64,000 bases of DNA from Micromonospora pallida. Its GTDB lineage: Bacteria; Actinomycetota; Actinomycetes; Mycobacteriales; Micromonosporaceae. Below, piece after piece: positions 4,396 through 55,309 of the stretch (position 1 is its first letter; each line of letters opens with the position of its first letter). The stretch is from NCBI RefSeq assembly GCF_900090325.1, contig NZ_FMHW01000002.1, positions 3,969,001-4,033,000 of the forward strand, read 5' to 3'. A program made the position numbers and the translations under genes. The notes beneath the pieces are model-generated. The model saw only the letters and a program-made list of their open reading frames with translations, did no database searches and was not told the origin of the DNA.

Positions 4396-4437
4396 CGATC
4401 CACACGTGAGTTCCGAGACGACCCGCAGGAGGAGACG

Positions 4438-5193: not shown

Positions 5194-5288
5194 GCGAGCA
5201 CCGCGACCCGCGCGGGCGATTGGACGAGAAGAGCACGAGCGCAGACTCCCTTGCAGAAGGCAGACTTCACAGGAAGTTGACTCCAGAC

Positions 5289-6356: not shown

Positions 6357-6422
6357 GTCCGGGCGCGCGCATCCGCTCCCGTCCCGAGTGACATTCCCAC
6401 GAACGACAAGGAAGCGAATCGC

Positions 6423-31638: not shown

Positions 31639-32718
31639 CTACCACCCGGCGACGCGCGCCGGGCAGCCGCCACCCCGGGCGGCCTCCTCGCCGTACGGGG
31701 CGATGAAGACCTTGTCGGCCTCCCCCACGGTCTGCGCGTCCAGCGCCCGGGTCACCTCGTCGACGCCGAAGAACGCCGGCCGCAGCCGGTCCAGGCCGAG
31801 GGTCGGCAACAGCCCTACCGCGCGGTGGTGGGTGTATGGGTTGATCACCGCGCCGACGATGGTCAGTTCCCGGGCGAAGATCTCGTTCGGGCGGATCCGC
31901 GCCTCGTCCTGCGGCCGGGCGACCCCGAAGACCAGGATCCGTCCGCCCCGGCTGGCCATGCCGAGCGCCGACTCCAGCACGCGCGCCGAGCCGACCGCGT
32001 CGACCACGGACGGGAAACCCAGGCCGCCGGTGAGCTCGCGGGCCGCGTCCGCGCTGCCCGGATCGCCCGGGTCGAGGGCCACGTGAGCGCCCATTCGCAA
32101 CGCCAGGTCCCGCCGGTCGGCGCGGGGGTCCATCACCACGATCGGGGCGAGCCCGCGCGACCGGGCCAGGGCCACCATCATCGCCCCGGCCGGGCCGGCC
32201 CCGTAGACCAGCACGGGCAGCCCGGAGCGGGGATCGAGCTGGTCCATGCCGTGCACGCAGCAGGCGAGCGGCTCGGTGAGCGCCCCGATCCATGGCGGGG
32301 TCTCCGGCGGCAACCGGTAGGCGATCCGCGCGGGCAGGACCATCCGCCCGGCCATTCCGCCGTCGAGGCGTACCCCGTAGCCGCGCTTGTGGTCGCAGAG
32401 GTGCTCCTGCCCGAGCCGGCAGTACACGCAGGCGGTGCAGTAGTCGTGCGGTTCGACGGTGACCAGGTCGCCGGGAGCGAGCGCGTCCACCTCCGGTCCG
32501 ACCTCGACCACCCGCCCGCAGACCTCGTGCCCGAGCACCACCGGGAACGCCGCCGGGAAGCTCCCGCCGACGATGTGGCTGTCGGTGCCGCAGACGCCGA
32601 CGGCGAGCGGGGCGATGGTCACCTCGCCCGGACCGGGCGAACGGGTCGGCACCCGCTCGGCACGGACGTCCCCCGGGCCGTGGCACCGTACGGCGAGGAC
32701 GGTGTCAGTAGGCGGCAC
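31639..32718 (-). CDS. Zinc-dependent alcohol/polyol dehydrogenase (MDR), last gene of the catabolic operon
   Basis: A 359-residue medium-chain dehydrogenase of the threonine/sorbitol dehydrogenase type. Catalytic zinc residues are in GVCGTDSH and GHEVCGRVVEVG. The structural-zinc cysteines are in YCTACVYCRLGQEHLC, and the nucleotide motif is VYGAGPAGAMMV. It oxidises a secondary alcohol of a sugar, polyol or sugar acid, or reduces an aldehyde. The GTG at 32718 has AAGGAG upstream and overlaps the end of the GntR gene by 14 nt. Within the proposed sulfosugar locus it could act on a sulfosugar alcohol or on sulfolactaldehyde, but this is inference. Confidence 0.88.
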   Translation of the reverse strand: MPPTDTVLAVRCHGPGDVRAERVPTRSPGPGEVTIAPLAVGVCGTDSHIVGGSFPAAFPVVLGHEVCGRVVEVGPEVDALAPGDLVTVEPHDYCTACVYCRLGQEHLCDHKRGYGVRLDGGMAGRMVLPARIAYRLPPETPPWIGALTEPLACCVHGMDQLDPRSGLPVLVYGAGPAGAMMVALARSRGLAPIVVMDPRADRRDLALRMGAHVALDPGDPGSADAARELTGGLGFPSVVDAVGSARVLESALGMASRGGRILVFGVARPQDEARIRPNEIFARELTIVGAVINPYTHHRAVGLLPTLGLDRLRPAFFGVDEVTRALDAQTVGEADKVFIAPYGEEAARGGGCPARVAGW

Positions 32719-33367
32719 GTAGCAACTCCTTCAGTCGTCTGATGTGCGCCCGCGCCGCCTCCCCGGCGGCGTCCGGGTCACCGGACCCGAGCGCCTCGAA
32801 GATGGCCTGGTGGTCGGCGACCGCCTGGGCCATGCCGCCGGTGAGGCTGGTGGACCGCATCGCGATCATGACCCGGCCCTGCACGCCGTCGAGCATCCGC
32901 ATCAGCACCGGGCTCTGCGCGGCCAGCCGGATCTCCCGGTGGAACGCCGCGTCGAGTTCGATGTGCCGGGCGAAGTCGCCGGCCGCGGCGACCTGCCGGT
33001 GCTCGGTGAGCAGGGCGAGCAGACGGCGGCGCAGCGCCGGGGTGTACCGCTCGGCGGCCAGCCGGGCCACCGCCCACTCCAGGGCCTCGCGGGCCTCGTA
33101 GAGGCTGACCAGTTCCTCACCCTCGATCCGGGCCACCACCGCGCCCCGGTTCATGGTCTCCCGGGCCAGGTCGTCGGTGACCAGGCGGATCACCGCGTCT
33201 CGGACCGGGCTGCGGCTGACCTGGAACTCCTCGGCCAGGGCCGGGACGCTGAGCCGGGCCCCGGGGCGCAGTTCCCCGGAGATGATCCGGTCCCGCAGGG
33301 TCCGGTAGATCAACTCGCCCACTCGCTCGCCGGTCTGGAGGTCGGCGTCCTGCGGGGTCACCGGCAT
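32705..33367 (-). CDS. GntR-family (FadR-type) transcriptional regulator
   Basis: A 220-residue regulator. The winged helix at about residues 15-80 shows LIYRTLRDRIISGELRPGARLSV, LAEEFQVSRSPVRDAVIRLV and a wing. A helical FCD effector domain at about 90-215 contains the metal-binding pattern AFHREIRLAAQSP and AVADHQAIFEAL. It probably senses a sugar acid or pathway intermediate and controls the operon it is embedded in. A GTG at 33418 overlapping the upstream stop (TAGTG) and a GTG at 33406 are alternative starts; the ATG at 33367 gives the normal family length. Confidence 0.88.
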   Translation of the reverse strand: MPVTPQDADLQTGERVGELIYRTLRDRIISGELRPGARLSVPALAEEFQVSRSPVRDAVIRLVTDDLARETMNRGAVVARIEGEELVSLYEAREALEWAVARLAAERYTPALRRRLLALLTEHRQVAAAGDFARHIELDAAFHREIRLAAQSPVLMRMLDGVQGRVMIAMRSTSLTGGMAQAVADHQAIFEALGSGDPDAAGEAARAHIRRLKELLRAAY

Positions 33368-33417
33368 CGTCAGGGCCGACGGCCCCGACGGGGAATGTGG
33401 CGTCACTGGTGTCCTCA

Positions 33418-34323
33418 CTAGTGTGGCTCGGGCCCGTCCGGCACCGCGGCGAGGAACGCGGCGGCGAAGCCGCGGTAGTTCGCGGCGACCGTCGCCACCG
33501 CCTGGGGGCGGGCCAGTTCCCCGGCGAGCAGCCCGCGCAGCGCGTCCCACCAGATGCTACGCCCGATAGCGAAGCCGGTGAATCCAGCGCCGGCCGCGTC
33601 GGCCAGCCAGCCCTCGACCTGCCGCACGGGCGCGCCGGCACCGAGCAGGATGCACTCGCCACCGGCGTCGGCGGCGATCCGGGCGGCGGTGCGGTAGTGC
33701 TCGGGCTGGTCCAGGTGCTCCAGCTTCCAGACGTCCACCGGGACCTCGTCGAGCAGTTCGGTCATCGCGCGGTGCACCAGGGCCGGGCGCAGTTCCCGCT
33801 CGTACCGTCCGCTGTCGCCGCCGACCGCGTCGAGCTGCGCGGACGTGGGCGGTACGAGCAGCTCGAACAGGAACCGGCCCCCGGTGTCGCGGACGGCGGC
33901 GGAGACCTCGGCGAGCCGGGCGCGCTGCACCCGGTTGCCCTCGGCGTCGCCCTCCACGTTGTAGCGCACCAGGACCTTCGGCAGGTCGGGCCGGTGGTGG
34001 TCCAGGTAGGACTTCAGGTCCGCCGGTTCGGTCTCGTAGATCTCGCAACCACCCCGCTCCACCGGCATGCTCACCGTCACCCCGTGGGCGCGGGCCCGTT
34101 CGGCGACGCCCGGGCCGAGGGCGTCGTCGACCAGGATGCCGGCGGGCGCGGCGAGACGTGGCTCGTCGGCCAGCGCCGCGAGGAGTCCCTCGGCCACCAT
34201 GTGCTTGCCGTCGCAGATCGCCGCCCGCTGCTCGGCGGTGGCGGTGCCGGTGTGGCCGTAGAGCGCCTTGGTGAGCCAGGGCCGCTGGTCCACGGCGAGG
34301 ATGAGCAGGTGCCGCTGGTTCAT
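33418..34323 (-). CDS. DUF2090 family class I aldolase-like protein (IolJ-type)
   Basis: A 301-residue TIM-barrel protein of DUF2090, the domain found fused to IolC kinases and associated with cleavage of 2-deoxy-5-keto-gluconate 6-phosphate. Diagnostic segments are LLILAVDQRPWLTKALYG at the start, AGILVDDALGPGV, KVLVRYNVEGD, FLFELLVPPTSAQLD, VWKLEHLD with the likely Schiff-base lysine, and GFAIGRSIWWDAL. It would split a ketosugar-acid phosphate into two three-carbon pieces. Its ATG overlaps by 4 nt the stop of the upstream dehydrogenase. It is the second aldolase of the locus beside the YihT-type enzyme. Confidence 0.85.
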   Translation of the reverse strand: MNQRHLLILAVDQRPWLTKALYGHTGTATAEQRAAICDGKHMVAEGLLAALADEPRLAAPAGILVDDALGPGVAERARAHGVTVSMPVERGGCEIYETEPADLKSYLDHHRPDLPKVLVRYNVEGDAEGNRVQRARLAEVSAAVRDTGGRFLFELLVPPTSAQLDAVGGDSGRYERELRPALVHRAMTELLDEVPVDVWKLEHLDQPEHYRTAARIAADAGGECILLGAGAPVRQVEGWLADAAGAGFTGFAIGRSIWWDALRGLLAGELARPQAVATVAANYRGFAAAFLAAVPDGPEPH

Positions 34324-35324
34324 CGGGCGTCCTCCGAGACGATGCAGGGCTTGAGGTAGTCACCGGCGACGAAGCGGGCGAACGCCTCGGGCAGGTCGGC
34401 GAGGGCGAGCGGCACGGTCAGCCGGTCCCGCAGGGCCGCGCCGGAGTTCCGTAGCAGGTCCCAGTTCGCCTCGACCTCGCTGGTGGGGAAGTAGAACGAG
34501 CGGATGGTGAACAGGTCGGTACGCCGCCAGCGCGGCGTCGCCGGCATGGTGTACGGCTGGTCGGACTCGCCGAGCGCGATCACCGCCCCGCCGGGGGCCA
34601 CCACCCGCTGCGCGGTCTCCCGGGCGGCGGTGACCCCGCTGACCTCGATGACCAGGTCGTACTGGTTCTCGCTTTCCAGGTCCTCGGCAGCCCGCGCGCC
34701 CAGCGCGACGGCGGTGGCGAGTCGGCCCTCGTGCGGGTCGGCGGCGTCAACGGCACCGATGCCGAACGCGCGGGCCACCGAGATCACCCCGAGGCCCAGC
34801 GGACCGGCGCCGACGACCAGCGCCCGGTCCACCCCGTCCGGCTGGGCGCGCTGCCACAGCCGCAGCGCGTGCGCGGCGGTGCCGACGGTGTCCAGACCCA
34901 GCACCGCCGTGGTCAGCGGGACGTCGTCGGGGACCGGGAGCAGACAGCGGGCGGGTACGTCGACATGTTCGGCGAAGCCGCCGTCGCGCTGCCAGCCGAT
35001 GAGCTGGGTCAACCGCAGGCACTGGTTGGTACGCCCGGCCACACAGCGCCGGCAGGTGCCACAGAAGACCGGGATGTAGACGATGGCACGGGTGCCGGTG
35101 GGCAGGTCGACCCCGGCGCCGACCTCGACGACGGTGCCGCCGATCTCGTGTCCGGGCACCACAGTCGAGCCCGAGCGCAGCAGCCGCTTGTCCGAGCCGC
35201 AGAGGGCACAGACGTCGACGCGCAGGCGTACCTCGCCCTCGGCGACCGGGCCGAGGGTGACCGTGTCGAAGTCGATCCGACCGTCGCCCGGGAACCGGGC
35301 ACGGACGCTGGTGGACGTCGTCAC
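34320..35324 (-). CDS. Zinc-dependent alcohol dehydrogenase (MDR)
   Basis: A 334-residue dehydrogenase with CALCGSDKRLLRSGSTVVPGHE as the catalytic-zinc region, CGTCRRCVAGRTNQC as the structural-zinc site and VVGAGPLGLGVISVARA as nucleotide motif. It differs clearly from the other dehydrogenase of this operon and lacks its GTD motif. The substrate is not predictable; sugar alcohol or aldehyde is likely from context. The GTG at 35324 overlaps the permease stop codon (GTGA) and the stop overlaps the aldolase ATG, so translation is coupled. Confidence 0.87.
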   Translation of the reverse strand: MTTSTSVRARFPGDGRIDFDTVTLGPVAEGEVRLRVDVCALCGSDKRLLRSGSTVVPGHEIGGTVVEVGAGVDLPTGTRAIVYIPVFCGTCRRCVAGRTNQCLRLTQLIGWQRDGGFAEHVDVPARCLLPVPDDVPLTTAVLGLDTVGTAAHALRLWQRAQPDGVDRALVVGAGPLGLGVISVARAFGIGAVDAADPHEGRLATAVALGARAAEDLESENQYDLVIEVSGVTAARETAQRVVAPGGAVIALGESDQPYTMPATPRWRRTDLFTIRSFYFPTSEVEANWDLLRNSGAALRDRLTVPLALADLPEAFARFVAGDYLKPCIVSEDAR

Positions 35325-36142
35325 TTGACGGCACCTCCGGTGATTCCACGCACCAGCCACCGCTGCGCGAAGATCGTCAACAGCAGGGCGGGCACTGAGA
35401 TGAGCGTGCTGGCAGCCATCAGCCCGCCGAAGTCGTTCGAGCCCTGGCCGATGAAGTTGAACGCGATGACGGTCAGCGGCAGGGTCCGGTCGTTGGCGAG
35501 CGCCAGGGCGAACAGGAAGTAGTTCCAGGAGAAGACGAAACTGAGCGTCAGCGCGACCGACAGACCCGGCAGGGCCAGCGGCAGGACGACGGTACGGAAC
35601 CGCTGCCACGGGGAGGCCCCGTCGATGAGCGTGGACTCCTCGATGCTGATCGGGATGTCCTCGAAGAACGGGATCAGCAGCCAGATGCAGAGCGGCAGCG
35701 TGATGATCAGGTGCGCCACGATGAGCAGGGCGTAGTTCAGCCCGGTGTTCGACGGCGCGTCGATGCGGATGGAGAGCACGAACAGCGGCAGGACGAAGAG
35801 CACACCCGGTGCCATCCGGGCGAGCAGGGTGACGAAGCCCAGCGTGGTGAGCTGCCGCCGGACCACCACGTACGCGGCGGGGGCGCCCAGCGCCAGGCCG
35901 AGCAGCGTGGACCCGCCGGCGACGACGAGACTGTTGACGATGTAGCGGCCGAACTCGAACCGCTCGAACAGGTTGGTGAAGTTCTCCAGGGTCAGCGGCG
36001 AGGTCACGTCGAACAGCGAGCCGGTGATGTCGACGTTGCGCCGCAGCGACGACCAGAGCATGAACAGCACCGGACCGAAGAAGATCACGGCGAAGACGGC
36101 GTACGCGGTGTAGACGCCGACCAGCCGCTTGCCCGTGTTCAC
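35321..36142 (-). CDS. ABC sugar transporter permease (MalG-type)
   Basis: A 273-residue permease with six transmembrane helices and the cytoplasmic EAA-type loop EESTLIDGASPWQRFRTVVLPLALPG that contacts the ATPase. It forms the inner-membrane channel with the next permease. The GTG at 36142 overlaps the stop of its partner by 4 nt. No ATP-binding gene is present in the operon, as is usual in actinobacteria that use a shared MsiK-type ATPase. Confidence 0.9.
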   Translation of the reverse strand: MNTGKRLVGVYTAYAVFAVIFFGPVLFMLWSSLRRNVDITGSLFDVTSPLTLENFTNLFERFEFGRYIVNSLVVAGGSTLLGLALGAPAAYVVVRRQLTTLGFVTLLARMAPGVLFVLPLFVLSIRIDAPSNTGLNYALLIVAHLIITLPLCIWLLIPFFEDIPISIEESTLIDGASPWQRFRTVVLPLALPGLSVALTLSFVFSWNYFLFALALANDRTLPLTVIAFNFIGQGSNDFGGLMAASTLISVPALLLTIFAQRWLVRGITGGAVK

Positions 36143-37002
36143 TTCGCGGCCCTCCTTCGTACCAGGGTGAAGACACCGGCGATCAGGACGACCAGCACCA
36201 GCAGGGCGATCTGGAGGGTGGCGGCGTAGCTCGGCTCCTGGTCGACGAACGCCTCGTTGTAGCCGTACACGTTGAGGGTGTTCGTGGCGTCGACCGGACC
36301 GCCCTGGGTCATGATGTAGATGGTGTCGAAGAAGCGGACGAGGTCCACGGTGCGCAGCAGCATCGCGACGGTCAGCACCGGCCGCAGCAGGGGCAGTCCG
36401 ATGTTCCACGCGGTACGCCAGCCGCTGGCGCCGTCGATGGAGGCCGCCTCGAACGGCTCCTCGGGCAGCGACCGGATCCCGGCGGCGATGATCAGCGCCA
36501 TGAACGGCGTCCACTGCCAGATGTCCACCAGGGCGATCGACCAGGGGGCGATCTCCGGGTCACCGAGCCAGACCACCGGGTCGATCCCGATCACGGCGAG
36601 CAGTTCGTTCGCCGCGCCCAGGCTCGGGTCCATGATCAGCAACCAGAGCAGGCCGACCGCCACCGACGCGGTGATGGCCGGGATGAGCATCATGCCCTGG
36701 AAGATCCGCCGGCCCGGCACGTCGAGGCTCATCACGTAGCCGAGCGCGAGCCCCAGCAGGGTCTCCACGAACAGGCAGACCACGAAGAGGAAGAGGGTGA
36801 CCTTCAGCGAGTTGTAGAAGGCCGGGTCGGCGAACATCCGGGCGTAGTTGTCGAAGGCGAGGAAGCCCGCGTTCGTGCCGTCGGACTGCCGGTCGGTCAC
36901 CGACAGCCAGACGGTGTACCCGATCGGCAGCAGGACCAGCAGGGCGGTGACCACCGTGGCCGGCACCACGAAGGGCCAGATTCCCCGGGCCGTCGGGTGC
37001 AC
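36139..37002 (-). CDS. ABC sugar transporter permease (MalF-type)
   Basis: A 287-residue permease with six helices and the EAA loop EAASIDGASGWRTAWNIGLPLLRP. The GTG at 37002 is the first start in frame but has no ribosome binding site. Just upstream, an ATG at 37091 opens the sequence MSTDTITKRASVPRPAP in another frame, 7 nt after the binding-protein stop. Joining it to the permease would need a shift near a G-rich run at about 37020-37045. Either the true start is 37002 or the gene carries a frameshift (or sequence error) in its N-terminal tail. Confidence 0.85.
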   Translation of the reverse strand: MHPTARGIWPFVVPATVVTALLVLLPIGYTVWLSVTDRQSDGTNAGFLAFDNYARMFADPAFYNSLKVTLFLFVVCLFVETLLGLALGYVMSLDVPGRRIFQGMMLIPAITASVAVGLLWLLIMDPSLGAANELLAVIGIDPVVWLGDPEIAPWSIALVDIWQWTPFMALIIAAGIRSLPEEPFEAASIDGASGWRTAWNIGLPLLRPVLTVAMLLRTVDLVRFFDTIYIMTQGGPVDATNTLNVYGYNEAFVDQEPSYAATLQIALLVLVVLIAGVFTLVRRRAAK

Positions 37003-37098
37003 GGTGCCGCGTCGGCGGCGTGCCCCCGCCCCCGTCCGGCCGGAGCGGGACGGGGGACGGACGCACGTTTCGTGATGGTGTCGGTGCTCATGGGATAC

Positions 37099-38391
37099 CT
37101 ACTCGGTGTTCTTCGCCAGCAGCGGGGTGAGGCCGTCCTGGATCTCCTTGGCCGCGTCCTCGGCGCTGGCCCGGCCGAGGATCACCTTGCCGACCGCGTC
37201 GCCGATGACCTTGCGCATCTCGGCGGCGGCAACACCGACCGGCCCGACCTCGGTCTCGCCGGTGGACTGCGCCTTGGTCAGCGCGGTGTTCCACTGCTTG
37301 AGGGTCTCGGTGTTCAGGGTGGCGGTGTAGGCCGGGTCCTCGGTGACCGAGGTGCGCGGCGGGGCGATGCCGGACTTGGTCAGCTCCAGCTGGGTCTCGG
37401 CGCTGGTGGCCCACTGGACGAACTTCCAGGCGGCGTCCTTGTTCTTCGAGAACGAGGAGACGGCCAGGCCCCAGGAGAGCACCGTGGTCTTCGAACCGGC
37501 GGAGCCGGCGGGGAAGTCGAGCACGCCGATGTTCTCGGCGACCTTGGAGGTCTTCGGGTCGACGATGCTGCTCAGCTCGTTGCTGGACTCCAGCTCCATG
37601 GCCGCGTTGCCGGCGGCGAAGAGAGCCGAGGACTGGGTGAAGGTGTTGTTGACCACGCCGGGCGGGCCGTACTCGCGGGCCAGGGTGGCGTAGCGGTCGA
37701 TCGCGGCGATCGCCTTCGGGTCGTCGAAGTTCGGCTTGCCGTCGGGCTTGGTCCAGGCCACGCCCTCGGAGTGCAGGAACGGGCCGAAGGTGAACGGCAG
37801 CGCGGCGGACTGCCCGCGCAGCGCGATCGGGGTGACCTTGCCGCCGGACTTCTGCTTGATCTGCTCGGCGGCGGTGGTCAGCTCGTCGAGGCTGGTCGGG
37901 GGCTTGACGCCGTACTGCTCGAACAGGTCGGTGCGGTAGTAGAGCACCACACCCTCGACGTTGATCGGCGCGGCGATCATCTTGTCGTCGACGGTCATGC
38001 CGGCGCGGACCGCCTCCGGGAAGTCGTCGACCTGGTAGTCGGCTGCTCCACTCGCCCGCTCGTCGAGCGGCTCGTAGTAGTTGGCCTTGGCGAACTGCGG
38101 GCCCTCCCGGGAGGGCAGCGTCATGAACACGTCCATCGACGAGCTGCGGGACTGGAGGTTGAGCTGCACCTTGTCCCGCATCTGCTGCTCGGCGAAGGTC
38201 TGCACCTTCACCGTGACGCCGGACTCCTGCTCGAACTCGTCGATCAACGGTTCGATGGCCCGCTGCCACGGGTGGTTGGACATGATCAGGTTGATCTCGT
38301 TGGCGGAGCCGGCGGAGTCCGAACCGCAGCCGGCGGTGAGCCCGCCGATCAGGGCCAGGGCGAGCGCCGTGCTCAGGTACCTGTGCCGCAT
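37099..38391 (-). CDS. ABC sugar-binding lipoprotein (family 1 solute-binding protein)
   Basis: A 430-residue extracellular solute-binding protein. The signal peptide ends in a lipobox LTAGC (Cys about residue 22), so it is anchored to the outer face of the membrane. The mature protein begins EINLIMSNHPWQRAIEPLIDEF and shows the two-lobe family 1 pattern for oligosaccharides or sugar derivatives. The ATG at 38391 gives a normal signal peptide. Its ligand would define the pathway; a sulfoquinovose glycoside is one candidate. Confidence 0.9.
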   Translation of the reverse strand: MRHRYLSTALALALIGGLTAGCGSDSAGSANEINLIMSNHPWQRAIEPLIDEFEQESGVTVKVQTFAEQQMRDKVQLNLQSRSSSMDVFMTLPSREGPQFAKANYYEPLDERASGAADYQVDDFPEAVRAGMTVDDKMIAAPINVEGVVLYYRTDLFEQYGVKPPTSLDELTTAAEQIKQKSGGKVTPIALRGQSAALPFTFGPFLHSEGVAWTKPDGKPNFDDPKAIAAIDRYATLAREYGPPGVVNNTFTQSSALFAAGNAAMELESSNELSSIVDPKTSKVAENIGVLDFPAGSAGSKTTVLSWGLAVSSFSKNKDAAWKFVQWATSAETQLELTKSGIAPPRTSVTEDPAYTATLNTETLKQWNTALTKAQSTGETEVGPVGVAAAEMRKVIGDAVGKVILGRASAEDAAKEIQDGLTPLLAKNTE

Positions 38392-38417
38392 GGGATGCCT
38401 TTCCGATTCGAGGGATG

Positions 38418-39527
38418 TCACTCGGTGACGAGGGGGGCGAGCCATCGGTGGAAGTCGTCGAGGTCGGCCGGGTCGGTGGTGCACCACTCCGGCGGTACAG
38501 GTCGGGTCCGGCCGGCGACGTCGGCCAGCGGCACCGGGTCGTACCCGGCCGCGTACGGGTCGGTGCCGGTGCGGTGCAGGCCGACCATGAGCCCGGTGGC
38601 CTGCTCGGCGAGCAGCCGCGCCGCGCGCCGGCCGGCCTCCGCCGCCTCCCGGCGGTCCACCTCGCTGGCCAGGGCGCCGGCCGACCGCTGCACCATGCCG
38701 AGGACCTCGCCCCGGGCGACGACCCCCAGTTCGGCGGTGACCAGCGCGGCCAGCCGGCGGGAGACGCCGCCCATCAGGATGCGGGTGTGGTTGACCGCGT
38801 CGAAGGGTTCGTCGGTCAGTTCACGGGCGGCGCCTTCGCTGGTCACCACGAACGCCCGGCCGTGCGCGTCGAGGGTGTCGGCGATCCGGCGGAGGAACTC
38901 CGCCCGGTCGAACGGCACCTCAGGGAGGAGGACCAGGTGCGGGGCGTGCGCCGGGTCTTCTCGGTGCCAGGTCGCGGCCAGTGCCAGCCAGCCCACCGAC
39001 CGGCCCAGGGTCTCCACGATCCGCACCGGTTCGATCGACCGCATGGCCGCGTGGTCGCGGGCCAGATCCGGTACGACCGTGGTCAGGTACCGCGCGGCGG
39101 AGCCGAACCCCGGGCAGTGGTCGACGCCGACCAGGTCGTTGTCGACGGTCTTCGGGATGCCGACCGTGTACAGCGGCAACCCGGCCCGCTCGGCGCGGTC
39201 GGTGAGCGCGCCGAGCAGCGCCATAGTGCCGTTGCCGCCGATCAGTGCCACCCCGTCGACGCGGTGCTCGGCGAGCGTCGCCACCGCCGCGTCGAGGTCG
39301 TCGTCGGTGACCGCCCGGCGGCCGGCGCCGAGCCAGGAGCCGCCCCGGCGGGTCCACTCCGGCGGGACGTCGGCGAGGGTGACCGGAGTGAACCGGCCGT
39401 CGACGAGTCCGTCCGGGCCACCGCGCAGGGCGAGCACGTCGTGTCCTTCGGCACCGGCGAGGAAGCCGCGCAGGCTCGCGTTGACGACGCTGGTCGGGGC
39501 CCCGGTCTGGCCGATGAGCAGGCGCAT
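38418..39527 (-). CDS. PfkA-family 6-phosphofructokinase-like sugar kinase
   Basis: A 369-residue kinase of the phosphofructokinase A fold. The nucleotide/diphosphate loop reads ALIGGNGTMALLGAL, and the catalytic loop reads GIPKTVDNDL, with the general-base Asp and a lysine where E. coli PfkA has glycine. ATP-dependent enzymes usually have GGDGS and PPi enzymes GGDDT with PKTIDND, so this protein is an atypical member and its phosphoryl donor cannot be fixed. Its place between an aldehyde dehydrogenase and a sugar importer, with a YihT-type aldolase nearby, suggests phosphorylation of 6-deoxy-6-sulfofructose or a related ketose at C1 rather than glycolytic duty. The ATG at 39527 starts directly at the first strand. 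Confidence 0.87.
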   Translation of the reverse strand: MRLLIGQTGAPTSVVNASLRGFLAGAEGHDVLALRGGPDGLVDGRFTPVTLADVPPEWTRRGGSWLGAGRRAVTDDDLDAAVATLAEHRVDGVALIGGNGTMALLGALTDRAERAGLPLYTVGIPKTVDNDLVGVDHCPGFGSAARYLTTVVPDLARDHAAMRSIEPVRIVETLGRSVGWLALAATWHREDPAHAPHLVLLPEVPFDRAEFLRRIADTLDAHGRAFVVTSEGAARELTDEPFDAVNHTRILMGGVSRRLAALVTAELGVVARGEVLGMVQRSAGALASEVDRREAAEAGRRAARLLAEQATGLMVGLHRTGTDPYAAGYDPVPLADVAGRTRPVPPEWCTTDPADLDDFHRWLAPLVTE

Positions 39528-39532
39528 GGCGA

Positions 39533-40999
39533 TCAGGCCCCCGCCGGGCGGGTCGCCACGCTGAGGAAGCTCTGGAACGCCTCCAGCCCCTGCCGGCCGC
39601 CCTCGTAGCCGAGGCCGGAGTCGGCGAGTCCGCCGAACGGGATCCACGGGGTGTTCGGGGTACCGGTGTTGACGCCGACGATGCCGGCGCGCAACCGCGC
39701 CGCGACCGCGTGCGCCGCATCCAGGTCGGTGCCGCAGACGTAGCCGGCGAGCCCGTACCCGGTGGCGTGGTGCAGCGCCAACGCCGCGTCGAGGTCGTCG
39801 TAGACGTGCACCGGGGCGACCGGCCCGAAGATCTCGCTGGTCATCGCGCGACTGTCCATCGGCGCGTCGAGCAGGACGGTCGGGGTGGCGTAGTGCCCGG
39901 CGGCCGGGGTCGGGGCGTTCGGGGTGACCGCGCGGGCGCCCTTGGCGACGGCCTCGTCGACCAGCTCGGCCATCCGCGCCGGGTCGCCGGCCGGGGCGAG
40001 CGGCCCGAGGTCGGTGCCGGGATCCCGGGGGTCACCGACGGCCAGCGCCCGGGTGGCCGCGACGAACGCCTCGGTGAACTCGGCGGCCACCTCCCGGGCG
40101 ACCAGGATCTGGTTCGCGGCGATGCAGGACTGGCCGTTGTTGCGGTACTTCGCCACGACCAGGGTCTGCGCGGCGGCCTGCGGGTCGGCGTCCGGCAGGA
40201 CGACGAACGGCGCGCAGCCGCCCAGTTCCAGGACGGTGCGCAGGAAGCGGGGTGCCGCCTGGGCGGCCACCAGCCGGCCGACCCGGGTCGACCCGGTGAA
40301 CGAGACCGCCTGCACGGCCGGGTCCGACAGCCACGGGTCGACCACGTCGGCGGGGGTGCCGAGCACGGTGGCGAGCACCCCGGCGGGCAGGTGCCGCTCG
40401 CACACGGCGGCGAGCACCAGCGAGGAGAGCGGGGCCAGCTCGGCGGGCTTGAACAGCACCGGGCAGCCGGCGGCGAGCGCCGGGGCGATCTTCCGGGCGG
40501 GGATGGAGACCGGGAAGTTCCACGGGGTGAGCACGGCGGCCACCCCGACCGGCCGGGTGGCCACCCGGTGCTCGTGCTGCGGCACCACCGTCAGCCGCTG
40601 GTCCTCCTGCCGCTCGACCAGGTCAGCCATGACCCGGAAGTAGGTGACGGTGAGCCCCAGCTCGGCGGTGGACTCGGCCAGCCGCTTGCCGGTCTCCCGG
40701 GTGATCAGGGCCGCCCAGTCCGGTCGGGTCGCCAGGGCCTCGACGTCGTCGGCGATCGCCCGCAACGCGGCGGCCCGCTGCGGCACCGGGGTCGCCGCCC
40801 AGGTCGGCAGCGCGGCGGTGGCGGCGGCGAGCGCCTCGGCGGCCTCGGCGGCGCCGCCGGTGACGACCTCGGTGAAGGCCGTCCCGGTGGCCGGGTCGAC
40901 CACGGGCAGCACCGGCCCGGACGCGCCGGTCGGGCCGGCGCCGATCCGCACCGCGCTCTTGGCGGCCAGTACCTCGTCGACGATGGAAAAGTCGGTCAC
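39533..40999 (-). CDS. NAD(P)-dependent aldehyde dehydrogenase
   Basis: A 488-residue aldehyde dehydrogenase. The active-site Cys is in NNGQSCIAANQ (about residue 283), the general-base Glu in TVLELGGCAPF (about 250), the cofactor loop in FTGSTRVG, and NFPVSIPARKIAPAL binds the dinucleotide. It resembles succinate-semialdehyde/lactaldehyde-type dehydrogenases. In sulfoglycolysis such enzymes oxidise sulfolactaldehyde to sulfolactate, which is the role I propose; lactaldehyde or another small aldehyde is the alternative. The GTG at 40999 overlaps the upstream stop (GTGA). Confidence 0.88.
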   Translation of the reverse strand: MTDFSIVDEVLAAKSAVRIGAGPTGASGPVLPVVDPATGTAFTEVVTGGAAEAAEALAAATAALPTWAATPVPQRAAALRAIADDVEALATRPDWAALITRETGKRLAESTAELGLTVTYFRVMADLVERQEDQRLTVVPQHEHRVATRPVGVAAVLTPWNFPVSIPARKIAPALAAGCPVLFKPAELAPLSSLVLAAVCERHLPAGVLATVLGTPADVVDPWLSDPAVQAVSFTGSTRVGRLVAAQAAPRFLRTVLELGGCAPFVVLPDADPQAAAQTLVVAKYRNNGQSCIAANQILVAREVAAEFTEAFVAATRALAVGDPRDPGTDLGPLAPAGDPARMAELVDEAVAKGARAVTPNAPTPAAGHYATPTVLLDAPMDSRAMTSEIFGPVAPVHVYDDLDAALALHHATGYGLAGYVCGTDLDAAHAVAARLRAGIVGVNTGTPNTPWIPFGGLADSGLGYEGGRQGLEAFQSFLSVATRPAGA

Positions 41000-42222: not shown

Positions 42223-42232
42223 GAGTCCTCTC

Positions 42233-42244
42233 TCACACGTGTGA
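42233..42244. promoter_or_regulatory. Second palindrome in the operon leader
   Basis: TCACACGTGTGA is a perfect 12-bp palindrome between the predicted transcription start and the enolase-superfamily ATG. It directly abuts the larger palindrome. It could be a second operator half or a separate site for the DeoR or GntR regulator of the locus. Confidence 0.5.
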
Positions 42245-42262
42245 AGAACTGCATGCAGTTCT
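42245..42262. promoter_or_regulatory. 18-bp perfect palindrome, likely repressor operator
   Basis: AGAACTGCATGCAGTTCT is fully self-complementary and covers the -10 box of the operon promoter. A bound dimer would block RNA polymerase. The CTGCATGCAG core suits a GntR/FadR-type repressor, and the operon encodes such a regulator, so autoregulation is likely. Confidence 0.75.
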
Positions 42263-42286
42263 AGCCGTCGTTCATCGAGCGGTCAA
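42258..42286 (-). promoter_or_regulatory. Predicted sigma-70-type promoter of the catabolic operon
   Basis: Read on the minus strand: TTGACC (42286-42281) as -35, 17-nt spacer, TAGAAC (42263-42258) as -10. Transcription would start near 42251, giving a short leader with GAGAGGA before the ATG. The remaining intergenic DNA up to the DeoR gene (to 42558) shows nothing I can name. Confidence 0.65.
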
Positions 42287-42558
42287 GAGCTGGAAACAAA
42301 CCGGGGCGCCACGATCAGGAAACGAGGGCGCCGAGGTCGGACACCGCGCACCAGACCGGACAGACGTCCAGGTGGCGTCACCCGGCGTTGGTTGATCGAC
42401 TCCGCGTCGGCGAAACCGGCGTGACCAAGCCGCCCGCACACCGCGACATCGGCAAACCGCCCGACCGGGCGCGGGCGACGGGCCGGCTACGACGGCGGCG
42501 GGACAGGCCGGCTAGGACGACGGTGAGCTGGCCCGGCCAGCGGTCGGACGGTGCGTGG

Positions 42559-43341
42559 TCAGACCGGGACGACGCGGATGCCGTTGCGCCGCACCGCCGC
42601 GGCGACCGGCTCGGGCAGCGGCGCGTCGACGACCAGGGTGTCGATCCGGTCGAGCCCACAGACCTGCACCGGCGCGGTGGCGGTCAGCTTGCTCGCGTCC
42701 ACCAGCAGGACGATCTCGTCGGCGATCTCCATCAGGGCGTGCTTCGCGCTGAGCTCGATCTCGGAACGCACGTAGACGCCGCGTTCGTCGAGCGCGCCGG
42801 CGCCGAGGAAGAGCGTCCGGATCCGCAGCCGCCGGGTCAGGTCGCGGGCGGCGAAGCCGACCAGCGCCTGGTTGTCGTGCAGCAGTTCGCCGCCGATCCC
42901 GATCACCCGGGCCCGGGGCCGCGACAGCATGTGCCCCAGTACGGGCACCGAGTGGGTGACCACGCACCCGTCGAACTCCGCCGGCAGGGCGTGCGCGACC
43001 TCGGCGGCCGTGGTGCCGCTGTCGATGCCGATGGTGTCGCCGGGGCGCACCAGTCGGGCGGCAGCGGCACCGATGGCCTGCTTGGCGCGGGTGTGGGTCT
43101 GCGCCCGGGAGGCGAACCCGGGCCCGGCGGCACCGCCGGGCGGCAGGCTCACCCCGCCGTGGACGAGGGTCACCTCGTTGGCCTCGGCGAGTTGGCGCAG
43201 GTCCCGGCGGACGGTCATCTGCGAGACGCCGAGCTGGGCGCTGAGTTCCGCGACGGACAGGAAGCCGGCCCGGCGCAGCGCGGCCATGATCTGGGTGCGG
43301 CGCCGGGGCGCGCCCTCGTACCGAGCCGTCTCCACGCTCAC
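42559..43341 (-). CDS. DeoR-family transcriptional regulator
   Basis: A 260-residue regulator. The N-terminal helix-turn-helix shows the DeoR signature RRTQIMAALRRAGFLSVAEL, then LGVSQMTVRRDLRQL. The C-terminal domain is the sugar-phosphate-sensing fold (IGIDSGTTAAEVAHAL, VIGIGGEL, FLGAGALDERGVYV). The GTG at 43341 has AGGAGG 6 nt upstream; a GTG at 43368 is less likely. It is divergent from the YihT-type aldolase gene. E. coli sulfoglycolysis is controlled by a DeoR-type regulator (CsqR/YihW), so the family fits the proposed role. Confidence 0.92.
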   Translation of the reverse strand: MSVETARYEGAPRRRTQIMAALRRAGFLSVAELSAQLGVSQMTVRRDLRQLAEANEVTLVHGGVSLPPGGAAGPGFASRAQTHTRAKQAIGAAAARLVRPGDTIGIDSGTTAAEVAHALPAEFDGCVVTHSVPVLGHMLSRPRARVIGIGGELLHDNQALVGFAARDLTRRLRIRTLFLGAGALDERGVYVRSEIELSAKHALMEIADEIVLLVDASKLTATAPVQVCGLDRIDTLVVDAPLPEPVAAAVRRNGIRVVPV

Positions 43342-43412
43342 GCCGGGCCTCCTGCCGATCGCCCTCACGGGTTCGTCGGCAGTTTAGAGCACCACAGGAT
43401 CTGTTCGTTAGT

Positions 43413-43427
43413 TACCACGTGATGGTA
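43413..43427. promoter_or_regulatory. Candidate DeoR operator
   Basis: TACCA-CGTGA-TGGTA is an inverted repeat in the 123-nt gap between the divergent DeoR and aldolase genes. Further TGGTAA/GTTACC half-site-like elements occur within 35 nt. It is a good candidate for regulation by the adjacent DeoR protein. Confidence 0.5.
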
Positions 43428-43464
43428 GGTTCCCAACATCTTCTGGTAATCCTGGGGAGGAACC

Positions 43465-44340
43465 ATGACCATCGCCACCGTGTCGCCGACCGTGCTGGCG
43501 CGTCCCTCCGGCGGCTACGCCATGCTCGCCATCGACCAGCGGGAAGCCCTGCGGGCGATGTTCGCCGCGAAGCAGAGCGAGCCGGTGACCGACGGGCAGA
43601 TCACCGACTTCAAGGTCGCGGCGGCCCGCACCCTGAGCCCGTACGCCTCGGCGATCCTGGTCGACAAGCAGTTCGCCTGGGACGCCGTCATCGCCGCGAA
43701 CGCCGTCGACCCCGGGTGCGCCCTCATCGCCGCCGCCGACCACTTCACCGGCAGCGCCACCGAGTTCGTCGCCGACGTGGCCATCGACGACGACGTCGAC
43801 CCGGCCACCGTGCGAGCCCAGGGTGCCAGGGCCCTCAAGCTGCTCGTCCTCTGGCGCCCCGACGAGGACCCCGCCGGCCGGATCGCCCTGGTGACCGACT
43901 TCGTCCAGCGGTGCCGTACCAACGGACTGGTCAGCATCATCGAGCCGGTGTCGCGCGGCCCCCGCGACGGCGGCGCCTTCGATCACGACGCCGGCATCTT
44001 CGCCGCCGCCGAGGAACTCGGCACGCTCGGCGCCGACCTCTACAAGGCCGAGGTCCCCACCGCCGGGCAGGGCACCGACGAGGAGATCCGCACCGGCTGC
44101 GCCAAGCTGACCGAGGCCGTCACCGGGCCCTGGGTGGTGCTGTCGTCCGGCGTACCCGCCGAGCGCTTCCCCGACGCGGTACGCCTCGCCTGCCAGGCCG
44201 GCGCCTCGGGCTTCCTCGCCGGCCGCGCGATCTGGGCCTCGGTCGTCGGTAGCCCGACCATGGCCGACGATCTGCGGACCGTCTCGGTGGACCGGCTGCG
44301 CCGCCTCTGCGACGTGGTCGACGACGCGGTGTCCCGCTAA
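43465..44340 (+). CDS. YihT-type class I aldolase (6-deoxy-6-sulfofructose-1-phosphate aldolase family)
   Basis: A 291-residue TIM-barrel class I aldolase. It matches E. coli YihT, as I remember it, through most of its length: SGGYAMLAIDQREALRAMFA, LSPYASAILVDKQF, ALKLLVLWRPDED, LVSIIEPV, GADLYKAEVP with Schiff-base Lys194, and GASGFLAGRAIWASVVG. YihT cleaves 6-deoxy-6-sulfofructose 1-phosphate into dihydroxyacetone phosphate and sulfolactaldehyde. LacD-type tagatose-bisphosphate aldolases are more distant in these segments. The ATG at 43465 follows GGGGAGGA. The next gene starts 4 nt after its stop. Sulfosugar specificity is an inference from family membership and the TauE-type neighbour. 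Confidence 0.88.
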   Translation: MTIATVSPTVLARPSGGYAMLAIDQREALRAMFAAKQSEPVTDGQITDFKVAAARTLSPYASAILVDKQFAWDAVIAANAVDPGCALIAAADHFTGSATEFVADVAIDDDVDPATVRAQGARALKLLVLWRPDEDPAGRIALVTDFVQRCRTNGLVSIIEPVSRGPRDGGAFDHDAGIFAAAEELGTLGADLYKAEVPTAGQGTDEEIRTGCAKLTEAVTGPWVVLSSGVPAERFPDAVRLACQAGASGFLAGRAIWASVVGSPTMADDLRTVSVDRLRRLCDVVDDAVSR

Positions 44341-44344
44341 CCCG

Positions 44345-45073
44345 GTGACCGGCCTCGGCGCTGTCCTCGCGGTGGTGGCGGTCGCCCTCGGGGCGGCCAT
44401 GCAGCGCGCCACCGGGCTCGGCTTCGCGCTGGTCGCCGCTCCCTTCCTGGTCATCATCCTCGGCCCGTTCTCCGGCGTCGTGCTGGCGAACCTGCTCTCC
44501 GCCGTGATCAACGTCGCCGTGCTCGGCACCACCCTGCGTGCCCTGCACGGACGGCTGGCGGTCGAGATGATCACCGGTGTGGTGGTCGCCGTCCCGCTCG
44601 GCGCCTGGGTGGTGACCGCCCTGCCCGGCCCGCTGCTGCTCGTCGGCGTCGGCTCGGTCACCGCGGCCTCGGTCACCTGGGTCGCCCGCGGCAATCCGCT
44701 ACCGTTCCTCCGCCGGCGGAGCGGCCCGCTGCTGTCCGGCTTCACCTCCGGTTTCTTCAACACCACCGCGGGCACCGGCGGCCCACCCCTGGCCGTCTAC
44801 GCGCAGAGCACCAACTGGGAACAGCGCAGCTTCGTCCCGACCGTGCAGCTCGTCGGCCTGGTCACCAACCTGCTCTCGCTGGCCACCAAGGGCCCGCCGG
44901 AGCTGTCCTGGCCGCTGTTGCTGGCCTGCGTCGCGGCGATGGCCGTCGGGATCGCCGGCGGCCAGGTCCTGGTTCGTTGGCTGCCCGAGGACCGGGCCCG
45001 CCGGTGGGTCGTCGCCCTGGCACTGATCGGTAGCGTCATCGCCGCCGGAAAGGGAGTGACAGCCCTGTGGTAG
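44345..45073 (+). CDS. TauE/SafE family anion exporter
   Basis: A 242-residue integral membrane protein with about eight helices, showing the duplicated TauE/SafE pattern. Matching segments are GFALVAAPFLVIILGPFSGVVLANLLSAVINV in the first half and GFTSGFFNTTAGTGGPPLAVYAQS in the second. Family members export sulfite, sulfoacetate and related organosulfonates. Starting 4 nt after the YihT-type aldolase, it is a natural candidate for sulfolactate (or sulfite) export. The GTG at 44345 is the coupled start. Confidence 0.88.
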   Translation: MTGLGAVLAVVAVALGAAMQRATGLGFALVAAPFLVIILGPFSGVVLANLLSAVINVAVLGTTLRALHGRLAVEMITGVVVAVPLGAWVVTALPGPLLLVGVGSVTAASVTWVARGNPLPFLRRRSGPLLSGFTSGFFNTTAGTGGPPLAVYAQSTNWEQRSFVPTVQLVGLVTNLLSLATKGPPELSWPLLLACVAAMAVGIAGGQVLVRWLPEDRARRWVVALALIGSVIAAGKGVTALW

Positions 45074-45462
45074 TCGACACCGACGACAACCGCACGTCGG
45101 CCGACCCGCCCCGCCGCTGGCCCGGTCGGGTCTTCGACCGGGGCGTCGACCCCGACCCCCGGTTCAGCCTCGCCAACGAGCGGACCTTCCTGGCCTGGAT
45201 CCGCACCTCGCTGGCCCTCTTCGCCGCCGGTGTCGCACTGGAGGCACTGACCCTGCCCATCGCCCCCGGACTACGCCGGGCGGCAGCCGTCGTCCTGATC
45301 CTGCTCGGCGCGGTGGCACCGGTCCAGGCGTTCCTCGGTTGGCTCCGCACCGAGGCGGCCCTACGGCTCGGCCGGAGCCTTCCGCCGTCGATGCTGGCGG
45401 TGCCGCTCGGGCTGGGCCTGGTCGTGGCGGGCGGGCTGATCCTGATCGGCCTCCTGGTGTGA
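45067..45462 (+). CDS. DUF202 membrane protein (YidH-like)
   Basis: A 131-residue protein with three transmembrane helices after a charged N terminus. The DUF202 motif is FSLANERTFLAWIRTSLALFAAG. The GTG at 45067 overlaps the TauE/SafE stop by 7 nt. DUF202 proteins are of unknown function and often occur in pairs, as here. Their role in this locus, if any, is unclear. Confidence 0.85.
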   Translation: MVVDTDDNRTSADPPRRWPGRVFDRGVDPDPRFSLANERTFLAWIRTSLALFAAGVALEALTLPIAPGLRRAAAVVLILLGAVAPVQAFLGWLRTEAALRLGRSLPPSMLAVPLGLGLVVAGGLILIGLLV

Positions 45463-55162: not shown

Positions 55163-55309
55163 GTCCTACTCCTGTTCGATCACCGGTGGCGGAGCCGATC
55201 GGCCAACCATGACGTGGCTTCGGTCTGTGTTTCGTCGCGGTGAAGAGCGTGTTGAGGACAGTAGCTTCACCGACCACCTTGTGCAATAGCCATCCGCCAT
55301 GTGGGTTGG

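What the first reader, a model, noticed from the sequence alone, without database searches (positions are those of the whole stretch)
31639..45073. Candidate sulfoglycolysis locus of unusual composition
Seen in sequence: a YihT-type aldolase followed at 4 nt by a TauE/SafE exporter, a divergent DeoR regulator, and on the other side an operon with a sugar ABC importer, PfkA-type kinase and aldehyde dehydrogenase. Known: YihT cleaves sulfofructose 1-phosphate in the E. coli sulfo-EMP pathway, TauE/SafE proteins export organosulfonates, and CsqR is a DeoR protein. An Arthrobacter variant (sulfo-EMP2) with another kinase family has been described, as far as I recall. Inferred: kinase, aldolase, sulfolactaldehyde dehydrogenase and sulfolactate export. 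No YihS-like isomerase or sulfoquinovosidase is present. Instead there are two zinc dehydrogenases, an enolase-superfamily enzyme and a DUF2090 aldolase, so the entry steps may differ from known pathways.
Basis: partly seen in the sequence, partly recalled or inferred. Interest (0 to 1): 0.82.

Follow-up and report, generated by a model that had tools for sequence, protein, structure and literature searches.

The report
Isomerase-free sulfosugar degradation gene cluster
A conserved bacterial gene cluster appears to break down a sulfonated sugar or sugar alcohol without the usual isomerase, and one of its enzymes may be a new kind that splits the carbon-sulfur bond, which would add a route to the natural sulfur cycle.

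Summary
The finding is real. A 13-gene locus (31639-45073) in a Micromonospora genome is kept as a block in 12 related Micromonosporaceae and, wholly or in part, in four Jiangellales-like genomes. Its aldolase belongs to the sulfofructose-1-phosphate (YihT) clade: 52% identical to E. coli YihT, 66% to one in a locus with GH31 and a FucI-type isomerase. Homologs of YihS, that isomerase and that GH31 were not found in the genome.

So it is not ordinary sulfo-EMP. Loci in Alphaproteobacteria and other Actinobacteria pair the same importer family with a zinc dehydrogenase, kinase and DHAP aldolase, without isomerase; I infer that a dehydrogenase makes the sulfoketose, probably from a sulfonated hexitol. 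The enolase-superfamily gene recurs with ALDH beside a sulfonate-type importer and overlaps TauE elsewhere; I infer that it acts on sulfolactate, possibly releasing sulfite. No activity was tested. TauE is missing beside three of the four Jiangellales-like loci, which speaks against a fixed link. Rivals: an oxidative branch, an unknown isomerase, C3-level dehydrogenases, a sulfate ester.

The parts
31639..32718 (-). Zn-dependent dehydrogenase B (P0013): proposed second sulfopolyol dehydrogenase
   Evidence: Pfam ADH_N + ADH_zinc_N; 41% identical to the Zn dehydrogenase of the Cereibacter YihT/YihV locus and 56% to that of the G290 locus; not found in the G586 and G399 stretches
32705..33367 (-). 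GntR/FCD regulator (P0012)
   Evidence: Pfam GntR + FCD; kept in 13 of 13 loci
33418..34323 (-). DUF2090 class I aldolase (P0011); role open
   Evidence: PF09863; lysine (DVWKLEH) and GRSIW motifs present; missing from the G577 locus
34320..35324 (-). Zn-dependent dehydrogenase A (P0010): proposed sulfopolyol-to-sulfoketose dehydrogenase
   Evidence: Pfam; 43% identical to the dehydrogenase of the Shinella locus; present in the minimal G399 locus at 48%
35321..36142 (-). ABC importer permease 2 (P0009)
   Evidence: Pfam BPD_transp_1; 43% to the Cereibacter carbohydrate ABC permease; kept in 13 of 13 loci
36139..37002 (-). ABC importer permease 1 (P0008)
   Evidence: Pfam BPD_transp_1; 41% to the Cereibacter sugar ABC permease; kept in 13 of 13 loci
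37099..38391 (-). solute-binding protein (P0007)
   Evidence: Pfam SBP_bac_1; best PDB match is a sorbitol-binding protein, 156 bits; same family as the binding proteins of the dehydrogenase-entry loci
38418..39527 (-). PfkA-type sugar kinase (P0006)
   Evidence: PF00365; keeps R243/R252 but not R162/H249 of E. coli PfkA
39533..40999 (-). aldehyde dehydrogenase (P0005): proposed sulfolactaldehyde dehydrogenase
   Evidence: PF00171; R170, R287, C293, E259 in P0005 numbering, which has one extra residue before the GTG start, at the positions proposed for RlGabD (PMC10599462)
40996..42222 (-). enolase-superfamily enzyme (P0004): proposed to act on sulfolactate; start uncertain (42195 or 42222)
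   Evidence: PF13378 + PF02746; KxK, metal ligands and His present
42559..43368 (-). DeoR regulator (P0003); start uncertain
   Evidence: PF00455 + PF08220; 29% to CsqR
43421..43440 (+). near-palindrome GATGKTA...AACATC upstream of the aldolase, candidate operator
   Evidence: alignment of 18 stretches, two of them from one genome; 1 match in the window with up to 3 mismatches, 0.04 expected; the exact pattern is not in every locus
43465..44340 (+). YihT-type class I aldolase (P0001)
   Evidence: 293.9 bits to SFP aldolase 7ag1 versus 62.6 to the best tagatose aldolase; tree
44345..45073 (+). TauE/SafE exporter (P0002)
   Evidence: PF01925
45067..45462 (+). DUF202 small membrane protein, neighbour of unknown relevance
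   Evidence: PF02656; follows TauE in all 13 other Micromonosporaceae genomes read

Best explanation
A catabolic locus for a sulfonated hexitol or an equivalent C6-sulfonated polyol. The ABC importer brings it in; a zinc dehydrogenase (A, and perhaps B) oxidises it to the sulfoketose in place of an aldose-ketose isomerase; the PfkA-type kinase makes the 1-phosphate; the YihT aldolase splits it into DHAP and sulfolactaldehyde; the ALDH makes sulfolactate; the enolase-superfamily enzyme then abstracts the alpha proton and expels sulfite, giving pyruvate; TauE exports the sulfite. Nothing is shown biochemically. My estimates per step: kinase plus SFP-type aldolase on a sulfoketose 0.8; ALDH as SLA dehydrogenase 0.75; enolase-superfamily enzyme acting on sulfolactate 0.48 (as sulfite-lyase 0.37); dehydrogenase entry from a sulfopolyol 0.5. 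The role of DUF2090 is open, perhaps a second aldolase for another stereoisomer.
For: Aldolase: clade of YihT with support 99/97 in a 27-row tree; 18 columns where at least 10 of 11 clade rows agree and at most 2 of 16 other rows share the letter; catalytic Lys and the S-G-R phosphate residues kept. Its 66-67% sisters lie in loci with PfkB/YihV-type kinase, FucI-type isomerase, GH31 and ALDH (G223, G218), with part of a TauE gene at the edge of the G218 stretch. Entry: no homolog of that isomerase, of that GH31 or of YihS in the genome. Dehydrogenase in place of isomerase: Cereibacter (Zn-DH, SlaB, YihT, YihV-like), G290, Shinella, Neorhizobium, Rhizobium and S. medicae (ADH, kinase, LacD-type aldolase, enolase-SF, TauE), and minimal G399 (YihT, importer, Zn-DH A, PfkA). 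The binding proteins of window, G399, Shinella, Cereibacter and G290 form one family (P0007 to the others: 32-47%, over 200 bits) while those of the SQase and Gfo/Idh loci do not belong (under 60 bits). Enolase-SF: pair with ALDH beside an NMT1-type ABC importer (best model in G577: aliphatic-sulfonate SsuA family, below cutoff) and a PF03446 dehydrogenase in G577 and G586; 4-nt overlap with TauE in Shinella and Sulfitobacter; an enolase-SF hit lies 3.9-5.4 kb from the Zn-DH A homolog in 9 of 11 plasmid records (coordinates).
Against: No sulfohexitol is known to me as a natural substrate, and the hexitol-type terms occur in none of the 20 papers listed (21 found). The sulfonate pocket of YihT could not be checked. 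The tree carries long-branch warnings, E. coli YihT among them. The enolase-SF enzyme scores highest against sugar-acid dehydratases, and an enolase-SF enzyme is the proven sulfogalactonate dehydratase in Paracoccus (PMC12421959). DUF2090 and the second dehydrogenase are not needed by this scheme. TauE is found beside YihT in G603 but not in the stretches of G542, G586, G577 or G399. The G577 locus lacks ALDH, enolase-SF and DUF2090 as well, and the G586 locus lacks ALDH and Zn-DH B. Both Variovorax plasmids have their best enolase-SF hit about 290-300 kb from the dehydrogenase; in the one read there is none within 10 kb. SuyAB was not searched for in the genome.
Confidence: 0.36

Rival explanations
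1. Oxidative branch beside the EMP branch: one Zn dehydrogenase oxidises a sulfoaldose at C1, the enolase-superfamily enzyme dehydrates the sulfohexonate and DUF2090 cleaves the 2-keto-3-deoxy product to pyruvate and SLA, which ALDH oxidises to sulfolactate for export by TauE.
For: Paracoccus wurundjeri has a proven enolase-SF sulfogalactonate dehydratase in a cluster that also holds a kinase and a PF01791 aldolase (not induced) and a Zn dehydrogenase (induced) (PMC12421959 sections 6, 10, 12). The Arthrobacter YA7-1 plasmid joins Gfo/Idh, SDR, dgoD, lactonase, DHDPS-family aldolase, kinase, YihT, SSADH and TauE. G577 lacks enolase-SF, ALDH and DUF2090 together at the locus.
Against: No lactonase or known KDSG-type aldolase among the locus genes scanned. 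The enolase-SF/ALDH pair occurs without any kinase, aldolase or sugar dehydrogenase recognised in the adjacent run of genes, beside a sulfonate-type importer. P0004 is only 26-29% identical to the Arthrobacter dgoD. G586 lacks ALDH but keeps enolase-SF and DUF2090 at the locus.
Confidence: 0.26
2. Plain sulfo-EMP for sulfoquinovose with an unrecognised isomerase; sulfolactate is exported; the other genes serve side substrates.
For: YihT clade, SLADH-like ALDH, TauE. Mixed sulfo-EMP/EMP2 clusters are reported in Actinobacteria (PMC12890257, PMC10599462).
Against: No homolog of YihS, of the FucI-type isomerase or of the GH31 SQase candidate in the genome; the importer family differs from those of the SQase and Gfo/Idh loci; the extra genes are kept across families.
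Confidence: 0.18
3. The Zn dehydrogenases act at the C3 level (SLA to DHPS, or DHPS interconversion), and the hexose enters by an unknown route.
For: The minimal G399 locus has Zn-DH A but no ALDH in the stretches read; a Zn dehydrogenase is induced in the Paracoccus sulfofucose cluster (PMC12421959).
Against: Recombinant Paracoccus Zn dehydrogenase did not oxidise SLA (PMC12421959). Loci with ALDH keep both dehydrogenases.
Confidence: 0.12
4. The substrate carries a sulfate ester or no sulfur at all (a polyol pathway).
For: A sulfatase-modifying gene and an arylsulfatase follow the Neorhizobium locus, and a sulfatase-modifying-type gene follows the Rhizobium one; the best binding-protein match is a sorbitol-binding protein.
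Against: YihT clade membership, TauE, and the SsuA-type importer beside the enolase/ALDH pair; the kinase keeps two arginines of the C6-phosphate site.
Confidence: 0.08

Closest known systems
Sulfo-EMP pathway (E. coli yih; Arthrobacter AK01/AK04)
   Same: class I SFP aldolase of the YihT clade, DeoR regulator, and in Arthrobacter ABC importer, SLA dehydrogenase and (AK04) TauE
   Different: no YihS, no YihV (PfkA-type kinase instead), no SQase; two Zn dehydrogenases, an enolase-SF enzyme and DUF2090 added
Sulfo-EMP2 pathway (Bacillus urumqiensis, Megamonas)
   Same: kinase in the same Pfam family (PF00365) as SqiK
   Different: class I, not class II, aldolase; no FucI-type isomerase; orthology to SqiK not tested
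Sulfofucolytic ED pathway (Paracoccus wurundjeri)
   Same: enolase-superfamily gene together with a Zn dehydrogenase, a kinase and a PF01791 aldolase in one cluster
   Different: no SDR dehydrogenase, lactonase or PF03328 aldolase in our locus; no SuyAB or ComC/SlcC among its genes
DHPS degradation and sulfolactate sulfolyase (SlaB, SuyAB)
   Same: SLA to sulfolactate, proposed sulfite release and TauE export
   Different: the proposed lyase is an enolase-superfamily enzyme, not SuyAB

Membership tests
SFP aldolase (YihT) clade | clusters with YihT apart from other class I aldolases; Schiff-base Lys and phosphate residues | tested here: met
   (K194, S227, G253, R254 in the window protein; roles recalled)
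SFP aldolase (YihT) clade | sulfonate-binding residues of the YihT structure | not testable with these tools
   structure paper not held
Sulfo-EMP | YihS-type SQ isomerase | tested here: not met
   none in G000; 3 of 14 locus-bearing genomes have a 40-41% homolog, outside the locus
Sulfo-EMP | YihV-type kinase in the locus | tested here: not met
Sulfo-EMP | sulfoquinovosidase (GH31) | tested here: not met
   no homolog of the G223 GH31 in G000 at 1e-10
Sulfo-EMP | sulfoquinovosidase (GH188) | tested here: inconclusive
   no match to an Arthrobacter Gfo/Idh gene at 1e-40, no positive control
Sulfo-EMP2 | SqvD isomerase | tested here: not met
   no homolog of the G223 FucI-type isomerase in G000; 13 of 14 locus-bearing genomes lack it, one weak partial match in G099. 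That query is SqvD-like by context and by a Pfam fucose isomerase match below cutoff; SqvD itself was not compared
Sulfo-EMP2 | SqiK kinase (PF00365) | tested here: inconclusive
   family present; no SqiK sequence compared
Sulfo-EMP2 | class II aldolase SqiA in the locus | tested here: not met
   genome not searched
Sulfo-ED / sulfofucolytic ED | SDR dehydrogenase, lactonase and PF03328 aldolase in the locus | tested here: not met
   a lactonase-family gene lies in another operon at 50997-51896
Sulfofucolytic ED | enolase-superfamily dehydratase (PF13378/PF02746) | tested here: inconclusive
   family met; SfcF itself not compared, substrate untested
SLA dehydrogenase | Cys/Glu dyad and Arg171/Arg289 pair proposed for RlGabD | tested here: met
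   positions matched by motif, by eye; not diagnostic, as SSADHs may share them
Sulfolactate sulfolyase SuyAB | SuyA/SuyB genes | not tested

The most novel reading that the evidence does not exclude
The locus encodes a sulfopolyol pathway in which zinc dehydrogenases replace the isomerase, and the enolase-superfamily enzyme is a new sulfolactate sulfite-lyase, so that one locus takes a C6 sulfonate to DHAP, pyruvate and exported sulfite. The same lyase family would serve C3-sulfonate degradation in other Actinobacteria and in Alphaproteobacteria.
Probability: 0.28. Interest if true: 0.87.

Novelty: new variant of a known kind. Interest (0 to 1): 0.72.

Why it matters
Sulfosugar breakdown is a large arm of the sulfur cycle, and the EMP-type routes in the papers I read start with an isomerase. 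A dehydrogenase entry would point to a natural substrate not yet looked for (sulfonated sugar alcohols). A carbon-sulfur lyase in the enolase superfamily would be a new function for a textbook superfamily and would let many orphan loci be read as complete desulfonation pathways. Both ideas are directly testable with single purified enzymes.

Tried and rejected
Orthodox SQ sulfo-EMP: rejected as the simplest reading because no homolog of YihS, of the FucI-type isomerase or of the GH31 SQase candidate was found in the genome. In G249 and G271 the YihS-like genes lie next to what look like, by eye, a beta-mannosidase and a PfkB kinase; the neighbours in G275 were not identified. I do not count them as SQ isomerases. 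GH31 homologs occur in 12 of the 14 locus-bearing genomes, at up to 48% identity over fragments, but not in G000 or G319. The GH188 test had no positive control.

Reading DUF2090 as the inositol-pathway aldolase: kept open; none of the locus proteins scanned is a usual inositol-pathway partner by Pfam. Reading the enolase-SF enzyme as DgoD-like: weakened by 26-29% identity. The 41-48% YihT-like genes in other Micromonosporaceae (L060-L072) fall in other clades and were not used as sulfo evidence, apart from the ZnDH-TarDH-ALDH-kinase arrangement of G290 (L070), whose aldolase is outside the SFP clade. Bradyrhizobium, Salipiger and Paracoccus seriniphilus contexts of enolase-SF homologs are mixed: GMC oxidoreductase or dehydratase partners, no clear sulfolactate route. 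The contig co-occurrence count (8 contig lengths shared by the DUF2090, PfkA and enolase-SF lists, of 75, 57 and 60 lengths typed in) uses contig length as a stand-in for identity, only part of each list, and lists capped at 120 rows.

Structure prediction and fold search were not used; I judged that they would add little to clear sequence matches.

Full report
What is there. The window lies in a 7.76-Mb genome of 4 contigs, completeness 100; the named close relatives of the aldolase are Micromonospora and Paractinoplanes. The locus runs from 31639 to 45073: on the minus strand DeoR, enolase-superfamily enzyme, ALDH, PfkA-type kinase, SBP, two permeases, Zn dehydrogenase A, DUF2090, GntR/FCD and Zn dehydrogenase B; on the plus strand the YihT-type aldolase and TauE. 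Several neighbours overlap by 4 nt, including enolase/ALDH and Zn-DH A/DUF2090. The importer has no ATPase gene in the locus.

Conservation. A homolog of the aldolase at E<=1e-30 is in 36 of 354 family genomes; in 14, the window included, it is 78-100% identical. In 12 of the other 13 the same gene order is seen, apart from cuts at stretch ends; in G014 only part is seen, on short contigs. Zn-DH B is present in all 7 genomes searched for it. Against 13 loci (10 Micromonosporaceae, G542, G603, G577) each of the 13 genes is found in 11-13; the genes to the left are found in 0-2, though 5 stretches end within 1 kb there. A near-palindrome upstream of the aldolase (43421-43440) lies in a stretch conserved across 18 aligned stretches. 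Contig lengths suggest that the locus reaches Leucobacter too (145097, in all three lists), while Glaciibacter and Paramicrobacterium match in two of the three lists; those contigs were not read.

The aldolase. P0001 scores 293.9 bits against SFP aldolase 7ag1 and 62.6 against the best tagatose aldolase. In a 27-row tree it falls with E. coli YihT, the Cereibacter and Arthrobacter proteins and two Micromonospora proteins in an 11-row clade supported 99/97; the program warns of long branches, E. coli YihT among them. Those two Micromonospora proteins, at 66-67% identity, lie in loci with PfkB/YihV-type kinase, FucI-type isomerase, GH31 and ALDH, with part of a TauE gene at the edge of one stretch. 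By Pfam the L058 kinase, GH31 and ALDH pass their cutoffs, but the isomerase reaches the fucose isomerase C-terminal family only below cutoff, 26.7 against 29.3 bits; I call it SqvD-like from that and its context. Catalytic Lys and the Ser-Gly-Arg of the phosphate site are invariant in all 27 rows, and 18 columns set the clade apart. Roles of single residues are recalled.

Kinase and ALDH. P0006 and 16 relatives keep R243 and R252 of E. coli PfkA in 17 of 17 and have lost R162 (Pro or Gln) and H249 (Met, Val, Thr or Leu) in 17 of 17; that these four hold the 6-phosphate is recalled. This fits a C6 anion that is not phosphate, but is only suggestive. P0005 has 8c54, RlGabD by recall, as its sixth solved match and both arginines that PMC10599462 proposes for sulfonate binding (matched by eye).

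No known isomerase. The FucI-type isomerase of G223 has no homolog in G000 or in 12 of the 13 other locus-bearing genomes, with one weak partial match in G099; it is found in both genomes with the canonical locus. GH31: no homolog of the G223 enzyme in G000 or G319, homologs in the other 12 locus-bearing genomes. YihS: none in G000 and 10 others, 40-41% homologs in three. So in G000 a sulfoketose must arise in another way, or the substrate is different.

Dehydrogenase entry. Cereibacter pRSKD131A: DeoR, importer, Zn-DH (41% to B), SSADH-type ALDH, tartrate DH, YihT (60%), YihV-like kinase. G290: the same set with Zn-DH 56% to B, but its aldolase is outside the SFP clade. Shinella HZN7 and WSC3-e: importer, ADH (43% to A), ATPase, kinase (45% to YihV), LacD-type aldolase, ALDH (54% to the Cereibacter one), SDR, enolase-SF (38% to P0004), TauE-family exporter. 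Neorhizobium and Rhizobium CC-CFT758 are alike without ALDH; in Rhizobium the enolase-SF match is in two pieces. S. medicae and Shinella oryzae have the full Shinella set by tblastn. Variovorax has importer, ADH, kinase, aldolase, SDR and a TauE-like gene but no enolase-SF within the stretch. G399 has DeoR, YihT, importer, Zn-DH A and PfkA. None of the annotated stretches lists a sugar isomerase. The binding proteins of window, G399, Shinella, Cereibacter and G290 match each other at 29-49% with over 190 bits, and match those of the SQase and Gfo/Idh loci at under 60 bits. That points to a different imported molecule. A polyol is the plain inference, since oxidation of a polyol gives the ketose the kinase needs.

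The enolase-superfamily gene. The residues expected of the superfamily are present: KxK, three metal ligands, Asp and His (roles recalled). Beyond this locus a 44-45% homolog pairs with a 45-46% ALDH in G577 and G586 beside a PF03446 dehydrogenase and an NMT1-type ABC importer. In G577 the dehydrogenase fits 3-hydroxyisobutyrate dehydrogenase best, 131.6 bits, and sulfolactaldehyde reductase at 110.5, and the binding protein fits the aliphatic-sulfonate family SsuA best, 116.6 bits, all below their curated cutoffs. No kinase, aldolase or sugar dehydrogenase was recognised in that run of genes, by BLAST against my set and by eye; a sugar-type ABC importer (G577) and what looks like a phosphohexomutase lie further left. 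So the carboxylate most likely comes from the ALDH, namely sulfolactate. In Sulfitobacter a 34-36% homolog overlaps TauE, with a tripartite tricarboxylate transporter upstream; in G399 a 50% homolog lies near TctA; a transporter of that class is a putative sulfolactate importer (PMC10507020, passages read). In Shinella and Neorhizobium it overlaps TauE. In 9 of 11 plasmid records with a Zn-DH A homolog an enolase-SF hit lies 3.9-5.4 kb away; in the two Variovorax records the best one is about 290-300 kb away (coordinates). Acid-sugar dehydratase chemistry (alpha-proton abstraction, beta leaving group) would fit sulfite loss from sulfolactate; this is inference. Against it, the nearest curated models are sugar-acid dehydratases and Paracoccus uses an enolase-SF dehydratase on sulfogalactonate (PMC12421959).

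Gene loss. G577 keeps YihT, PfkA, importer, both Zn dehydrogenases and GntR but not enolase-SF, ALDH, DUF2090 or TauE at the locus; judging by its handle number it was in the sample, where it is not among the 9 of 394 genomes with a DUF2090 match. G586 lacks ALDH, TauE and Zn-DH B in the stretches read, G542 lacks TauE, and G603 has all 13. TauE is thus present in 13 of 13 other Micromonosporaceae but in 1 of 4 Jiangellales-like loci, so the exporter is not a fixed part. Zn-DH A, YihT, PfkA and the importer are in every one of these four and in G399: a core apart from the downstream genes. Whether DUF2090 belongs to the downstream module is not decided.

What is in print. Seen: PMC8873060 (parts 1-3 of 4), PMC9594981 (outline, sections 8-9), PMC12890257 (outline, section 7 part 1, passages), PMC13372026 (outline, section 21), PMC12421959 (outline, sections 3, 6, 10, part 1 of 12, passages), PMC10599462 (section 12, passages), PMC10755693 and PMC10507020 (passages). 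Mixed sulfo-EMP/EMP2 clusters are known. One search listed no paper using sulfohexitol-type terms; one search found two papers with Micromonospora and sulfoquinovose; one search listed two papers holding both enolase superfamily and sulfolactate (PMC12965863, PMC10384328) that I did not read. So novelty is claimed only within these searches and this open-access library.

Verdict. A real, conserved, sulfonate-type locus of unusual make-up: a new variant of sulfoglycolysis, with a candidate new C-S lyase as its boldest reading.

Noticed in passing
window 49874-56326 (-): A second sugar operon: enolase-superfamily enzyme, SMP-30/gluconolactonase, two permeases, SBP and an acetyl xylan esterase-type gene.
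   Followed up: partly
window 56456-61081 (+): A 1541-aa protein with NPCBM-associated and golvesin C-terminal domains and no other Pfam match at 1e-5.
   Followed up: no
window 1751-8125 (+): AMP-binding enzyme, O-methyltransferase and DegT aminotransferase genes close together on one strand, like part of a small-molecule biosynthesis cluster.
   Followed up: no
window 45067-45821 (+): Two DUF202 genes after TauE; the first follows TauE in all 13 other Micromonosporaceae genomes read.
   Followed up: yes
L120 8775-10657: Sulfitobacter plasmid: TauE and enolase-superfamily genes overlap by 4 nt near a tripartite tricarboxylate transporter, with fumarase and a succinate-dehydrogenase-like set opposite.
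   Followed up: partly
L152 15810-18948 and L147 13264-15885: Arylsulfatase and sulfatase-modifying-type genes close to enolase-superfamily homologs in Neorhizobium and Bradyrhizobium.
   Followed up: no
L118 10895-11950 and L070 3122-4183: A tartrate dehydrogenase-type gene sits in the dehydrogenase-entry loci of Cereibacter and of Micromonospora G290, 52% alike; its role is unexplained.
   Followed up: no
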